Assembly: GCF_014698505.1 (NCBI RefSeq)
Contig: NZ_JACJTD010000042.1
Location: 1 to 64,000, forward strand
DNA length: 64,000 nucleotides
Source of the DNA: Nostoc foliaceum FACHB-393
GTDB lineage: Bacteria; Cyanobacteriota; Cyanobacteriia; Cyanobacteriales; Nostocaceae
Direction: 5' to 3'
Shown here: positions 1 through 4,500 of the stretch, piece by piece
Position numbering within the stretch: the stretch's first letter is position 1
Layout: each line of letters starts with the position of its first letter
Made by a program: the position numbers and the translations under genes
Notes under the pieces: generated by a model
Told to the model about the DNA's origin: nothing
The model's input: the letters and a program-made list of their open reading frames with translations, nothing else
Databases searched by the model: none

Positions 1-2753
1 AAACTTTCAAGTTCATCAGGTTCACTTTCTGGCTTGAGATACAAAGTACAAATTCTTTCCACTTCTTCGGGTGATATACTCTGCTTGTTGCACCAAGCTT
101 TGATGCAAGCATCGCTCAATTCTTCAACCAAGCCATAATCAACTACAGCAATTTCAGTATCTTCATTACACGCAATTAAATTGAGAAGTTTGATAATATC
201 CGGCTCACGTACTTGTTGATTTTTGGGAGTATATACAAGAGCATGATACTTTTTATTATGATTTAGTAAAACATAAACTGATGGTTCCGAGTCCTGAGTT
301 ATCTTTGCACTGACAATATCACTAAGAATAGTCTTAGCATAATCACGATGCATTTGTAGTTTTGCTGTATGTTGATAGAAGGGAGAAATATCCAAATCTG
401 CTAAAGCGTCTAAGTTTAATTGACCTGATTTTATTATTACTTGAGACGCAAGCTCAGGCAGATTAATTTCTTGGGAATTGGCAATTGTTAAAACGGGTAA
501 GTCCGTCAGCTTTCTAGATTCTCCATGACGCAACATGAGATTTTCCCAACGTTGTCTAATTCTGACTAAATCATACTTAAGGTCTGTCTCTTGTGTCAGG
601 TTAGGAACAAAGGTATATACTTTGACTGTTCGTGGAGAATGCCAAAAACGCAATATGCGTCCAGCTCGTTGAACAGGGCCAATAGGAGTCCAATCAATAT
701 CATAATTTATCACAGCAGATGCATCTTGCATATTAACCCCAACTCCATGAGCATCTGTGGAAATAAATACATCATAGCTTTCTTCAGAAATGGTTTCAGC
801 ATTATTAGAAATCGGTGCAAACTTTTTGATGAGTTTTTCTATTTCATTGGTTTCTTTCATCTGATATTTATCTTCATTCTCACTCGCTTCGATAGTTGCA
901 ACTACTTTTAATGCAGGGAACATTTGTTTGAATGCCTGTGCCAAGTAAACAACAGTAGCGCGACGTTCGCAAAATATAATTGCTTTTTCGGAATTCTGCT
1001 TAAGTTCTTGAATAATTATGTAAAGTGCTCTGAGCTTCAAGTCACTTTCAAAATCCAAATTAGTCAACGTTTCAATTAGAGGATTTAAAAGAGATTGTCT
1101 TTCTTGTTGATCCGACACAAACTTTAATTTCCCAAGTTTGTACTCGTTCTTTCCTCCAGGAGTATCAACAACGCTTTCAAGAACTCCACGAAGAGCCAAT
1201 GGAGAACTTGCCCAAGCAATTTTTACCAATCTCCTGATACATTCTCGAAACATAGGATTACGTGAATCTAAATCAAAATATCTTTTTTTAATTGCATCTA
1301 TCAGTTCCTTATCTAGTAAGAGAGGAAAATTGACACTGTATAGTACAATTTTGGGAATATATCTCTTCTCTGTTCCAAAAAGAATATAATTCTCTTGATT
1401 TTCTGATTGACTGTAATATTTAGCTACGTGAGGTGTAGTTAGTTGAGAAGCTACGGATAGATTAACAAAATCTTCGGTTTGCTCTATATGCCATGCACGG
1501 GCGTTATCGTCGTAATCTTCATCCAGCAAAGTATGAAGTTCGGCAGTATGTGGTAATAAATATAACTGATTATTTAAATTACTTTCATCTCTAGCATAAG
1601 GGGAACCAGTCAACAATAAGACCTTCGTATTGCTGCTCTTTTTCAAGAATTTTTTTAAACGGAGAAAAGCCCGACGCTCTGCGGGGTTTTTCTTCATATT
1701 AAATAAATCTTGTTTGAAACGGTTTCTAAAATAATGACTTTCATCAAAAATAATTAACCATCGTTGCTCATGAAGATTTTTTTGAATTTCTTCAAACAAT
1801 TCTAAGCTCCCATCCTGCTCCGAACCACTCTTATCTAAAGCCTGATAAACAAAATACTCGCAAGGTAGACCAGCATCACGCATTTCGCGTGTCCAACTAC
1901 TGCGGACTGCCTTTGGGCCAATAACCATAATATTATCAATTAGGTCATCATTGCGAAGGTGTAAAGCTACGTGAACTGCTACGACTGTTTTGCCAAGTCC
2001 AGTAGAAGCTACTAGCATTGAACCGCCAAACTCTTTTATCTGCCGCAGTGTTTGAGCAATCATATCCACCTGGTATGAAACAGGTTGTTTATTATAATTA
2101 CTTTTGATTGGTTGTATGTCTTCCAGCGCTAACATAGTCTTTAGGTATACATCCCACGGTGGCACAAAGTTAAGCCAGCGCTGCAAGACTTCTAATAATT
2201 CTTGGGTAATGTCTTTCGCTTCAGCAAAATATGTATCAAACTCGTTTACCAGTGCCACAACCTCGCGGTGTTTAGTTATTATATTCCCTGCCTCAACTTG
2301 CTCCCTCAAACCACGTTGGGTAAGATTTGACGAAGCCATAATTGCGACTTTGCGATCAACAATATATAGCTTGGCATGATGGTCTGTAGCTCTAGCATCT
2401 ACAAGGTGTAATCTACCTTGTTGCATTTTTTCTATTAAATCCAGTACTGTCTGTCGCCGCTCCCTGTCCAGACCTGTTCGCAGGTCGCGTAATATTTCAT
2501 CAATTAGAGCTTGCCGCGCTCGTTCTTCTCCGGGGTCATCAAGACCAACTAAAATATAAACGCGCTTGCCTTTTGTGTATCGTCGAACTAGCCCCCAACC
2601 TCTGATGGTAAAGAATCCAGAAGCGATGCGAATCTCTTTTTTAGCTGTTTGGAAGTAGTGGCTTATATACTCCAAAGCCTTTCTTCTCTCAAACCAGCTT
2701 TCTCGTGGAGTACCTATTTCACCGCTTTCGTTATTTTCTATTTCTTCATTCAT
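1..2753 (-). CDS. PLD-nuclease / SF2-helicase fusion protein (partial, C-terminus beyond left edge)
   Basis: The minus-strand frame opens at ATG 2753-2751 and stays open for 917 codons to the edge, so the C-terminus is missing. Residues about 20-170 look like a phospholipase-D-type domain: the segment HAKLYIVD followed by ASSNL matches one HxK(x4)D motif near residue 125. From about residue 240 there is a superfamily-2 helicase: STGLGKT (Walker A, about 251), DESH (about 334), LTGSPY, and a C-terminal lobe with FISTDAHGVGVN and QRAGRILR (motif VI, about 694). Proteins that join PLD and a RapA/SNF2-like helicase are known from bacterial defence and restriction-like loci, but I cannot assign a named system. 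No partner gene is visible upstream; the next region is non-coding. Helicase call sure, PLD likely, biological role inferred. Confidence 0.85.
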   Translation of the reverse strand, partial: MNEEIENNESGEIGTPRESWFERRKALEYISHYFQTAKKEIRIASGFFTIRGWGLVRRYTKGKRVYILVGLDDPGEERARQALIDEILRDLRTGLDRERRQTVLDLIEKMQQGRLHLVDARATDHHAKLYIVDRKVAIMASSNLTQRGLREQVEAGNIITKHREVVALVNEFDTYFAEAKDITQELLEVLQRWLNFVPPWDVYLKTMLALEDIQPIKSNYNKQPVSYQVDMIAQTLRQIKEFGGSMLVASTGLGKTVVAVHVALHLRNDDLIDNIMVIGPKAVRSSWTREMRDAGLPCEYFVYQALDKSGSEQDGSLELFEEIQKNLHEQRWLIIFDESHYFRNRFKQDLFNMKKNPAERRAFLRLKKFLKKSSNTKVLLLTGSPYARDESNLNNQLYLLPHTAELHTLLDEDYDDNARAWHIEQTEDFVNLSVASQLTTPHVAKYYSQSENQENYILFGTEKRYIPKIVLYSVNFPLLLDKELIDAIKKRYFDLDSRNPMFRECIRRLVKIAWASSPLALRGVLESVVDTPGGKNEYKLGKLKFVSDQQERQSLLNPLIETLTNLDFESDLKLRALYIIIQELKQNSEKAIIFCERRATVVYLAQAFKQMFPALKVVATIEASENEDKYQMKETNEIEKLIKKFAPISNNAETISEESYDVFISTDAHGVGVNMQDASAVINYDIDWTPIGPVQRAGRILRFWHSPRTVKVYTFVPNLTQETDLKYDLVRIRQRWENLMLRHGESRKLTDLPVLTIANSQEINLPELASQVIIKSGQLNLDALADLDISPFYQHTAKLQMHRDYAKTILSDIVSAKITQDSEPSVYVLLNHNKKYHALVYTPKNQQVREPDIIKLLNLIACNEDTEIAVVDYGLVEELSDACIKAWCNKQSISPEEVERICTLYLKPESEPDELES

Positions 2754-3228
2754 GAGTTGGGATTGCTTATGGTAGATCCAGTTTCGAGGTCAACGTACCA
2801 TTTTATAAATTTTCAACTTTAATAATTCCCGTACTATTACTAGAAAACATGAAATTCAAAATCAAAAATAACCCCACAGAATTGGTGGGGATAATGGTCA
2901 GCTAAGGAAGTATGTCTAAGTAGTACAATAATACTATTAAGTGATTATGCGGTCAAGTGTGCCGGAGTCGTTATACTTCAGTTAGACGTAGAATTACTAA
3001 ACCAAGCTAGTTGTTGGCCAATTCCTAATCCTATAAAAGGAATTTCAACTGTATAACCAACTACTTGAAACATCAAGACTGTACTTTATTAAGTAGTACT
3101 ATTTTTAGTATTCCCAAAATAAAATTTCTATACCCCCAGTTGATAACAAGCCGTTCACGGAAACCTCTACTTGTGATGTCGAGTCTGCCGTACAGTCATG
3201 GGGTTCGGCATTATGCACAATAAAGTTA
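2754..3228. other. Intergenic stretch upstream of the PLD-helicase and tmRNA-like gene
   Basis: No convincing gene is seen. It holds the promoter side of the minus-strand helicase and a small hairpin at 2872-2890 (CCCCAC / GTGGGG, 7-base loop). The one minus-strand frame here (3105-3293) lies largely antisense to the tmRNA-like sequence and has no family features. Confidence 0.5.
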
Positions 3229-3377
3229 GGGTCTGTAATGGTTTCGACTCTTTGGCGAAAGCATCTCTGTGAAACAGATCGAGAGTGAGTCATATCTCGT
3301 AAATCACTGGCTCTTTTTATAGAAGAAACGAATATACGGTAGCAACCGCTTTGGGTTAATCATGTCCCAAAGCGGTT
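3229..3377 (+). ncRNA. ssrA-like: tmRNA-like RNA (5' domain, pseudoknot 1, tag hairpin); 3' half not recognised
   Basis: From 3229 the sequence follows the 5' half of cyanobacterial tmRNA: GGGTCTG acceptor strand, then TAATGGTTTCGAC (the conserved D-loop region), TTGGCGAAAGC, and a pseudoknot 1. In the pseudoknot CGAGA (3280-3284) pairs with TCTCG (3295-3299) and GAGTCA (3287-3292) pairs with TGGCTC (3308-3313). An open frame then reads NEYTVATALG and stops at TAA 3357-3359. That stop lies in the loop of a perfect 12-bp hairpin (3344-3355 / 3366-3377), as in the tag helix of real tmRNAs. I could not find the pseudoknots, T-arm or CCA-side acceptor strand downstream, so this is either a reduced or split tmRNA or a decayed copy. 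The tag end (TALG) differs from the usual ALAA/AVAA. Confidence 0.6.
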
Positions 3378-3555
3378 ATTGAAATGTTATGCCATCGCTT
3401 TAGACCGAAATAAAGACCTCTGGGAAATGTCGAAATTGTTGACGGGAATGTTGAAGAATGCCGAGTGAGAAAAATTAATAAATCGACTAATTATAGTAGA
3501 TTAATCGTAATCCAAGTACTGGTAATTAAATCGCTACGCATTTTGAGAATCAGAA

Positions 3556-3759
3556 ATGCCTTCTAAATCCCAGTCACGTTATCCAGAAAACTGGTCAGAT
3601 ATCGCTCTTGATGTTAAACAACCTGTGGGCTGGCGTTGTTCTAAATGTCGGTTGCAGTGCATTCGCCCCCTTGATGATACCAAAAAACTTACCCGTTCCC
3701 TTAGAATGGAGCAAATGCAACCATATACTGAAGAAATGGTTGAGTTAGATAAACAGTAG
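3556..3759 (+). CDS. Small CxxC protein, truncated HNH-endonuclease-like
   Basis: A 67-residue product starting MPSKSQSRYPENW, with WRCSKCRLQC near residue 27. This resembles the N-terminus of the small HNH proteins common in cyanobacteria (pattern: MPSKS..RYPENW...A..VK...W.C..C...C). Those proteins continue with a second zinc pair and an HH motif; here the frame stops before them. It is therefore probably a truncated or recombined derivative, and nuclease activity is unlikely. It is followed after 6 bases by another small gene. Confidence 0.5.
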   Translation: MPSKSQSRYPENWSDIALDVKQPVGWRCSKCRLQCIRPLDDTKKLTRSLRMEQMQPYTEEMVELDKQ

Positions 3760-3765
3760 TAAATT

Positions 3766-3987
3766 ATGTCAACAATCCAACGCTTATCAAACGGATTAAA
3801 CCTAATTGTTAAGTACGATGAATCAGCCAATGTTGGTATTGGCTCAGAGATAAACGAGCCGGGTATCATTTATGTAGAAGATAAATCTTTGAAAACTTAT
3901 ACTAATATGTCAGAGCTTGAACGTTATAATATGAATTCTTGGGGTTGGAAATGGGATAATGGATTGTGGATAATAGACTTAGATTAA
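3766..3987 (+). CDS. Small orphan protein (73 aa)
   Basis: Begins six bases after the preceding small gene, so the two may be co-transcribed. The product is soluble and acidic with an aromatic C-terminus (NSWGWKWDNGLW). No motif, signal peptide or membrane segment is visible and I do not recognise the family. Confidence 0.4.
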   Translation: MSTIQRLSNGLNLIVKYDESANVGIGSEINEPGIIYVEDKSLKTYTNMSELERYNMNSWGWKWDNGLWIIDLD

Positions 3988-4218
3988 GGTATTACTGGAC
4001 AATAGGAATAAACAGTAGATTTTAAGTTAGCTTGCGGTTATTTTTAAGAGAGCATAGATGCAAATTTTTTATGTCATTATTGGCGCTAAAGTACGAAATT
4101 ATATTCCCTCTTGCTCTGTTTATGGTTTAGAAGTTTTCTCATTTTTTAGTTCAAAGCACAGTTACACAACTTGAAGTTCTGTTAAAGTAAAACTTAGGAA
4201 AGAAGTGTAGAGAAAAAT

Positions 4219-4500
4219 ATGAGCGATCGCTTAATGGAAAAACTGTTTAATGAGGCAGTCAGCCCAATCTTCTCTTCAAACAACTTAACTAAATATTCAG
4301 CGCTCAAACAAAGAGAAGACGAATTCAAAGCATTATTTAATATTGAACTAGTAGAATATGTTGACTCGAAGAGAGGATTTAACTTTTCTCTATTTATCCG
4401 CGACTTTTTGAGCGAAGCTAAATTGCCATATAGCAGTGCTGTTAAGCAAAAATATGGAGAGCGAGCGGCGAATTTGATTGGGGAATTAATTTGTATTTGA
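4219..4500 (+). CDS. Small orphan protein (93 aa)
   Basis: The start codon overlaps a HIP1 site (ATGAGCGATCGC). The product has an even charge pattern and no transmembrane segment, cysteine motif or helix-turn-helix that I can identify. Its coding character is reasonable (no neighbouring frame is better), but the function is unknown. Confidence 0.45.
   Translation: MSDRLMEKLFNEAVSPIFSSNNLTKYSALKQREDEFKALFNIELVEYVDSKRGFNFSLFIRDFLSEAKLPYSSAVKQKYGERAANLIGELICI

What the first reader, a model, noticed from the sequence alone, without database searches (positions are those of the whole stretch)
3229..3377. tmRNA-like gene on the element with an unusual tag and no recognisable 3' half
The D-loop region TAATGGTTTCGAC, a fully paired pseudoknot 1 and a tag stop codon in a perfect 12-bp hairpin strongly recall tmRNA. 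The tag would end TALG rather than ALAA, which might label proteins without directing degradation. The missing T-arm means that it is reduced, split or decaying. A second tmRNA carried by a plasmid could rescue ribosomes with a different label.
Basis: partly seen in the sequence, partly recalled or inferred. Interest (0 to 1): 0.75.

Follow-up and report, generated by a model that had tools for sequence, protein, structure and literature searches.

The report
Truncated tmRNA relic on Nostoc plasmid
A plasmid of a Nostoc-like cyanobacterium carries the front part of a ribosome-rescue RNA gene (tmRNA) that has lost its back half, and the supposed unusual protein tag is really the stretch that lies behind the gene in related plasmids, so it very probably cannot work as a second tmRNA.

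Summary
The 5' part is real. Window 3229-3315 matches positions 1-87 of a 389-position profile of genus-level chromosomal ssrA (E 9.5e-17), including the D-loop and a fully paired PK1. ARAGORN and Rfam find nothing.

The "tag" is not supported. Window 3314-3377 belongs to a trailer (ATAGAAGAA...CCGCTTTGGG hairpin) that, in 8 of 13 trailer-bearing copies, directly follows the tmRNA 3' acceptor end. It is 3' flank. The tag frame shows no codon-level conservation.

The window copy and three near-identical sisters (own contig C169, G032, G003) join PK1 straight to the trailer. Tag, T arm and 3' acceptor strand are missing, and no convincing partner piece was found in the host. The host has an intact chromosomal ssrA.

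Best reading: a truncated, probably dead copy in a patchy Nostocaceae plasmid cassette whose ends are conserved while the tmRNA core has been cut down in different ways. Whether any cassette makes a useful RNA is open: in PCC 7524/G223 the core is more conserved than its flanks.

Side finding: an 81-nt tRNA-like-domain-only tmRNA relative, with covariation support, in 54 of 208 Nostocaceae genomes.

The parts
3145..3228 (+). Conserved leader upstream of the tmRNA part; CACAATAAAGTTA directly before GGG could be a -10 region with a start at the mature 5' end (read by eye)
   Evidence: Shared with PCC 7524, G223, G234, G076, G075, G140, G217 and, leader only, Tolypothrix. The promoter scan found no sigma-70-like site on the + strand here, so the promoter reading is inference.
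3229..3235 (+). GGGTCTG, 5' strand of the tmRNA acceptor stem; its 3' partner (CAGATCC in PCC 7524, G223, G076) is absent here
3236..3248 (+). tmRNA D-loop motif TAATGGTTTCGAC
   Evidence: in sister copy G003 it is TAATGGTTTTGAC
3280..3313 (+). PK1: CGAGA/TCTCG and GAGTC/GGCTC; homology to ssrA ends here
   Evidence: nhmmer alignment of 3229-3315 to model positions 1-87; stems unchanged in all four window-type copies
3314..3343 (+). First part of the 3'-flank trailer, TTTTTATAGAAGAAACGAATATACGGTAGC; its ATAGAAGAA box is the most conserved part of the family
   Evidence: Nearly invariant in A1; follows GATCCA or AATCCA, the tmRNA 3' end, in 8 of the 13 copies that have it
3344..3377 (+). Perfect 12-bp hairpin with a 10-nt loop; possibly an RNA-level 3' hairpin (terminator-like), not tag helix 5
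   Evidence: the terminator scan did not call it
3403..3468 (+). Last codons of a tyrosine recombinase gene (DRNKDLWEMSKLLTGMLKNAE*), broken: the upstream part of the gene is missing
2989..3118 (.). Remains of a neighbouring module: relative to own contig C169 and to Tolypothrix about 1.2 kb (a DUF6884 gene and a hypothetical gene) is missing between 3061 and 3067

Best explanation
The window holds a truncated, most probably non-functional copy of a plasmid-borne ssrA (tmRNA) gene. An ancestral plasmid cassette held leader, tmRNA and a trailer with a hairpin. In the window lineage, DNA from just after PK1 to the last bases of the gene was lost, so PK1 now runs straight into the 3'-flank trailer. 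Any transcript would be an RNA of about 150 nt with a D-loop, PK1 and a 3' hairpin, but without tag, T arm or acceptor stem. It should not be charged with alanine, rescue ribosomes or tag proteins. Shown: homology of the 5' part, identity of the trailer as 3' flank in sisters, absence of the 3' half, different truncations in sister plasmids. Inferred: the order of events, whether it is transcribed, lack of function.
For: Profile match limited to ssrA positions 1-87, stopping at the PK1 end. Sister elements with the same trailer hold other remnants: PCC 7524 and G223 keep ssrA positions 328-389 (E 2.1e-7 and 1.4e-6); G234 and G224 keep about 36 nt that read by eye as a D-loop/T-loop hybrid (profile E 0.78 and 0.38, not significant); G076 and G075 keep about 29 nt, essentially an acceptor stem. 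Eight of the 13 trailer-bearing copies have GATCCA or AATCCA just before the trailer. No codon-level conservation of the tag frame. No convincing partner 3' piece in the host; intact chromosomal ssrA, 130.8 bits. The copy lies among other broken pieces: a recombinase tail and a deleted 1.2-kb module. In one of the six pairs of window-type copies the core has changed faster than its flanks (window/G003: 6 of 85 against 2 of 151, P 0.027).
Against: Four copies in three genomes are 96-98% identical, so the form is being copied, not just rotting. PK1 stems are intact in all four. The other five pairs show no significant excess of core changes: P 1.0, 0.295, 0.256 and 0.058, and C169/G032 has 0 of 85 core against 2 of 151 flank changes. 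The trailer box is more conserved than a dead 3' flank should be. A complete ancestral cassette was not found. No transcription data.
Confidence: 0.7

Rival explanations
1. The cassette is a living small-RNA gene derived from tmRNA. The leader drives it, the + strand hairpin ends it, and the conserved box ATAGAAGAAGCAAATATAC or the remaining acceptor/T-arm part is what acts, for example as a decoy for SmpB or alanyl-tRNA synthetase or by pairing with a target.
For: Leader and trailer are conserved across several genera while the contexts differ: of all ORF families near the 14 elements only one is shared by four loci. The hairpin varies mostly by G-U wobble on the + strand: in A2 10 cells against 1 A-C cell; over 9 sequences of A1 12 wobble cells of 6 distinct kinds against 1 A-C, 1 A-G and 3 loop-closing A-A cells. 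Wobble against A-C: binomial P 0.006 for 10 of 11 cells, 0.06 for 6 of 7 distinct changes. In the PCC 7524/G223 pair the 71-nt core differs at 1 site, the flanks at 18 of 150 (P 0.008). A TLD-only tmRNA is reported in mycobacteriophage DS6A, and the authors cite that a similar molecule inhibits tmRNA (PMC4131195, passages).
Against: Folding energies of the nine cores are not unusual: z from -2.13 to +0.81, window -0.92. No hairpin pair is changed on both sides. Cores differ so much that no shared active part remains except the trailer box. The acceptor stem is absent in the window type, broken in G140 and weakened in G224, G075 and G217. No promoter or terminator was called on the + strand. 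Only 13 of 217 family genomes match at E 6e-5 or better.
Confidence: 0.2
2. One reading: a second, plasmid-borne tmRNA that tags proteins with a peptide ending TALG, which would mark without degrading.
For: D-loop and PK1 are intact. The frame RRNEYTVATALG* is open, and the same frame has no stop in the gap-free stretch of the 10 trailers compared. The stop lies in a hairpin loop.
Against: The stretch is 3' flank in sisters. Codon test null. No T arm and no 3' acceptor strand. Rfam and ARAGORN negative. The frame has no stop in the loop of G223, G140 and G217 (read by eye).
Confidence: 0.03
3. Split (two-piece or circularly permuted) tmRNA whose acceptor piece lies upstream or elsewhere in the genome.
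For: Two-piece tmRNAs exist in some cyanobacteria (recalled). The window keeps just the half up to PK1. One place in the host, C13:165892-165912, has a T-arm-like stretch ending CAGATCCAC, which could pair with GGGTCTG; RF04321 (permuted tmRNA) gives 15.6 bits there, E 0.41, far below its cut-off of 47.
Against: The C13 stretch has its own GGGTCTG with a tRNA-like D arm about 190 nt upstream, so it reads as the 3' end of another, interrupted tRNA-like gene. The PCC 7524-type 3' half has no blastn match in the host, a search too weak to show the chromosomal ssrA 3' half either. The pattern search gave 23 matches against 10 for the backwards control. Rfam finds no permuted or cyanobacterial tmRNA in the window.
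Confidence: 0.02
4. Scar of a genomic island integrating into ssrA (an att fragment).
For: Fragments of ssrA made by island integration are known (PMC4131195, passages). A recombinase tail lies 25 nt downstream of the hairpin.
Against: The kept part is the 5' half with 79% identity to the chromosome; a near-identical 3' end fragment would be expected (recalled). The same block occurs on other contigs without the recombinase tail (own C169, PCC 7524).
Confidence: 0.03

Closest known systems
tmRNA / ssrA (Rfam RF00023), as on the host chromosome (G000 C79:125091-125480)
   Same: 5' acceptor strand, D-loop and PK1, 79% identity over 85 nt
   Different: No tag, no later pseudoknots, no T arm, no 3' acceptor strand; own leader and trailer
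[quoted passage not shown]
   Same: One gene end missing, second copy beside an intact ssrA
   Different: Carried in a plasmid cassette family with conserved leader and trailer and several different truncations
TLD-only tmRNA of mycobacteriophage DS6A (PMC4131195, passages seen; its sequence was not examined here)
   Same: tmRNA reduced on a mobile element; the PCC 7524/G223 members keep the acceptor stem and a T arm
   Different: The window copy lacks the T arm and the acceptor 3' strand, and PCC 7524 lacks the D-loop, so neither is a complete TLD

Membership tests
tmRNA (RF00023) | 5' tRNA-like half: acceptor strand and D-loop UUCGAC | tested here: met
   window 3229-3248, profile match E 9.5e-17
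tmRNA (RF00023) | Pseudoknot PK1 | tested here: met
   Both stems present, 5 pairs each (read)
tmRNA (RF00023) | Tag reading frame after PK1 | tested here: not met
   Stretch is homologous to 3' flank, outside the profile match; codon test P 0.47
tmRNA (RF00023) | T arm and 3' acceptor strand | tested here: not met
   Absent in 4 of 4 window-type copies
tmRNA (RF00023) | Significant covariance score / ARAGORN call | tested here: not met
tmRNA (RF00023) | Alanylation, SmpB binding, tagging | not testable with these tools
   needs RNA and biochemistry
Permuted or two-piece tmRNA (RF04321, RF01851) | Acceptor piece upstream of, or separate from, the coding piece | tested here: not met
   Rfam 0 matches; no convincing separate piece
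tmRNA pseudogene (one end missing) | Clear ssrA homology covering only one end, beside an intact ssrA in the same genome | tested here: met
TLD-only tmRNA (DS6A type) | Acceptor stem, D-loop and T arm without message domain | tested here: not met
   Window lacks T arm and acceptor 3' strand

The most novel reading that the evidence does not exclude
The leader-core-trailer cassettes, the window's included, are a family of living plasmid RNAs descended from tmRNA. They have shed the message and parts of the tRNA-like domain and now act through the conserved trailer box or the remaining tRNA-like part, for instance by titrating SmpB or alanyl-tRNA synthetase to blunt the host's ribosome rescue.
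Probability: 0.18. Interest if true: 0.65.

Novelty: new variant of a known kind. Interest (0 to 1): 0.36.

Why it matters
It closes a tempting reading (a plasmid tmRNA with a non-degrading tag) and replaces it with a testable family: plasmid cassettes in which tmRNA has been cut down in several different ways between conserved ends. If those ends mark a live RNA, mobile elements would be using broken tmRNA against or beside the host's ribosome rescue. The search also led to a well-supported TLD-only tmRNA relative in about a quarter of the Nostocaceae genomes searched (54 of 208), which is the better target for bench work.

Tried and rejected
Tag reading of 3314-3377: rejected by sister loci, profile alignment and codon test. 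Split or permuted form: no convincing partner. Integration scar: rejected on which end is kept and on identity. Recombinase site: I first read the 12-10-12 inverted repeat with its inverted spacer as a site for the nearby recombinase; set aside because the arms vary by G-U wobble on the + strand and the repeat occurs without that recombinase tail; not formally excluded. Coding peptide in the trailer: the tag frame is open in the 10 trailers compared but has no synonymous excess; another frame gave P 0.035 with 15 stops, which I read as chance. Common neighbour gene: none. Complete ancestral cassette: not found with patterns in genome contigs (only the Nostoc favosum copy), in 388 order-level genomes or in viral contigs (trailer pattern, 0 matches), with model R1 in 217 family and 368 order genomes (stricter filters), or in plasmids and phages (best E about 1). 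Model R1 was built from 9 of the loci it then matched and added no convincing element that blastn had not shown; four of its 17 family matches have E 0.008-0.0099 and are probably chance. L126 (viral contig with the side family's loop letters) is a chance match by eye: no acceptor stem or T arm around it.

Rows dropped: one search used 8 of 18 chromosomal ssrA loci, because my end-finding expression failed on the other 10 (most lay reversed in the locus). One search used 10 of 14 elements (G032 and G003 near-identical to others, G227 has an indel, Tolypothrix has no trailer). Alignment A2 used 9 of 14 elements. Side family: 27 rows, 21 distinct (A3); A4 and model R2 used 15 of these 21, leaving out 6 with a T-loop insertion. 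One search compared five of six window-type pairs; the sixth was added.

Literature: searches (listings only) showed no report of this cassette; only PMC4131195 was opened, as passages.

Full report
WHAT IS THERE. The window is positions 1-64000 of contig C115 (65,509 bases) of a genome of 8.87 Mb. The contig has a TrbI conjugation protein gene, a primase/polymerase and helicases, so a large plasmid is likely. At 3229-3313 lies the 5' part of a tmRNA gene. A profile of eight chromosomal ssrA sequences from the genus, the host's included, matches 3229-3315 at positions 1-87 of 389 with E 9.5e-17, and the host's own ssrA is 79% identical over 85 nt. The acceptor 5' strand, the D-loop and both PK1 stems are present. 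ARAGORN calls nothing; Rfam gives no match over the window at gathering scores and none at E up to 5 over 2600-4300. The host has a complete chromosomal ssrA with tag ANNIVNFARKDALVAA (130.8 bits).

SISTER ELEMENTS. The block occurs again at 96-98% identity on own contig C169, in G032 (by length and place the contig of Nostoc favosum CHAB5714) and in G003. All four are truncated in the same way. More distant relatives share leader and trailer but hold other remnants between them. PCC 7524 plasmid pNOS7524.01 and G223 hold GGGTCTG and the tmRNA 3' part with its T arm (profile positions 328-389, E 2.1e-7 and 1.4e-6). G234 and G224 hold about 36 nt that read by eye as a hybrid of D-loop and T-loop, as if the body had been lost between the two TTCGACTC-like motifs (profile E 0.78 and 0.38, not significant); G224 also lacks most of the leader. 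G076 and G075 hold about 29 nt, essentially an acceptor stem. G140 and G217 hold weaker remnants. Tolypothrix has the leader alone and G227 the trailer alone. Of 217 family genomes 17 match model R1 at E up to 0.01, of which 13 at 6e-5 or better; of 368 order-level genomes 2, both in this family. The neighbours differ: among ORFs near the 14 elements one family is shared by four loci, the rest by three or fewer.

THE TAG. In eight of the 13 trailer-bearing copies (PCC 7524, G223, G234, G224, G076, G075, G140, G217) this stretch follows GATCCA or AATCCA, the 3' end of the tmRNA. It is therefore 3' flank, and the window has lost everything between PK1 and that flank; the junction reads GGCTC/TTTTTATAG against CCAC/TTTTTATAG in PCC 7524. 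The ssrA profile does not extend into it. Among 10 trailers the tag frame has 47 synonymous and 177 non-synonymous codon differences (0.210 against 0.209 with shuffled columns, P 0.47). The frame is open in the ten trailers compared, which is why it looked like a tag. The TTAAT of the loop is part of the exact reverse complement of the PCC 7524/G234 loop.

IS ANY OF IT ALIVE? Evidence for an RNA: the hairpin arms change mostly by G-U wobble on the + strand (10 cells against one A-C cell and three loop-closing A-A cells in A2; 12 against one A-C, one A-G and three A-A over nine sequences of A1; wobble against A-C P 0.006 counting cells, 0.06 counting distinct changes), with no pair changed on both sides. 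In PCC 7524/G223 the 71-nt core has 1 change and the flanks 18 in 150 (P 0.008). Evidence on decay in the window type is thin: window/G003 core 6 of 85 against flanks 2 of 151 (P 0.027), but four other pairs are not significant (P 1.0, 0.295, 0.256, 0.058) and C169/G032 has 0 of 85 in the core and 2 of 151 in the flanks; G003 has lost the D-loop's UUCGAC. Fold energies are ordinary (z -2.13 to +0.81 among the nine cores, window -0.92). The scans show no sigma-70-like promoter or standard terminator on the + strand; a CACAAT box seven bases before GGG is my reading by eye. I conclude that the window copy is a relic (0.70), mainly because the parts that make a tmRNA work are absent, and leave open that the cassette family makes an RNA (0.2).

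NO PARTNER. A PCC 7524-type 3' half is not found in the host by blastn, a search that does not show the chromosomal ssrA 3' half either. A pattern for a T arm plus CAGAYCCAC with up to 2 mismatches gave 23 matches (10 for the backwards control), among them the chromosomal ssrA (C79) and C13:165892-165912. The C13 stretch ends CAGATCCACT and could pair with GGGTCTG, but it has its own GGGTCTG with a tRNA-like D arm about 190 nt upstream and a CUA tRNA between them; RF04321 gives 15.6 bits there against a cut-off of 47 (E 0.41). I read it as another, interrupted tRNA-like gene, not as a partner. A split tmRNA is therefore not supported, though not formally excluded.

SURROUNDINGS. Downstream, 3403-3468 encodes the tail of a tyrosine recombinase (frame from 3397: ALDRNKDLWEMSKLLTGMLKNAE*; whole in Nostoc sp. 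C057). Upstream, about 1.2 kb with two genes present in own C169 and Tolypothrix is missing. The window copy thus sits in a stretch of broken modules.

SIDE FINDING. Following a weak tmRNA match on host contig C13 (24 bits) led to an 81-nt RNA with acceptor stem, tmRNA-like D-loop, a short stem with the loop AAACCAACAAA where the message should be, and a T arm. On 15 distinct sequences six pairs show changes on both sides, 99.0% of cells pair, and the G3-U70 position is G-U in 15 of 15. Model R2, built from those 15, finds it in 54 of 208 Nostocaceae genomes at E up to 1e-6, the genomes of 14 of the 15 among those eligible by construction; many places lie on contigs of several megabases. It also lies in plasmid tRNA arrays of Nostoc sp. 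MS1 and Kovacikia minuta. Of seven loci scanned one passes the Rfam tmRNA cut-off (L145, 48.3 bits). Similar TLD-only matches lie in Streptomyces phage LuckySocke, where none is annotated (57.1 bits), and in IMG/VR contig L075 (59.8 bits). One precedent is in print, mycobacteriophage DS6A (PMC4131195, passages). The paper searches showed no report of the cyanobacterial RNA (listings only).

Noticed in passing
host contig C13:165565-165667 (L003 1501-1603; L125 from 2066; L132); also L127-L151, L123 1502-1582, L122 1481-1578: A conserved 81-nt tRNA-like-domain-only tmRNA relative without message domain: G3-U70 in 15 of 15, six pairs with changes on both sides, 54 of 208 Nostocaceae genomes; in 5 of 13 loci scanned (and in the host) a tRNA that ARAGORN calls Pyl (CUA) lies close by. 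Could be a SmpB/alanyl-tRNA synthetase ligand or a rescue RNA without tag; worth a study of its own.
   Followed up: partly
L122, L129, L132 (host copy), L133, L135, L150: In these 6 of 21 distinct copies of the TLD-only RNA the T-loop carries an insertion of about 20 nt, perhaps a small intron-like insert.
   Followed up: no
L125 2204-2413 (host C13): A tRNA-like 5' half (GGGTCTGTAGCTCTAATGGTAGAG...) and a matching 3' half (...GGTTCAATCCCGATCAGATCCACT) about 190 nt apart, with a whole CUA tRNA between them: looks like a tRNA gene interrupted by another tRNA.
   Followed up: partly
L107 2501-2581 (Streptomyces phage LuckySocke); L075 4240-4319, and by eye L076 and L078 (IMG/VR): TLD-only tmRNAs in phages, about 80 nt: RF00023 57.1 bits in L107, not annotated there, and 59.8 bits in L075; L076 and L078 were compared by eye only. 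tRNA genes lie near in L107 and L075. Phages Alone3 and GiJojo have blastn matches.
   Followed up: partly
L124 708-1129 (-), Gordonia phage Sixama: A tmRNA match (88.1 bits) that is not annotated in the record.
   Followed up: no
window 3356-3365 against L029/L050: The 10-nt hairpin loop is exactly inverted between window-type copies and PCC 7524/G234, as template switching at an inverted repeat could leave.
   Followed up: no
L033 and L031 against window 2989-3118: About 1.2 kb with a DUF6884 gene and a hypothetical gene is present in own C169 and Tolypothrix and missing from the window between 7-bp overlapping ends.
   Followed up: partly
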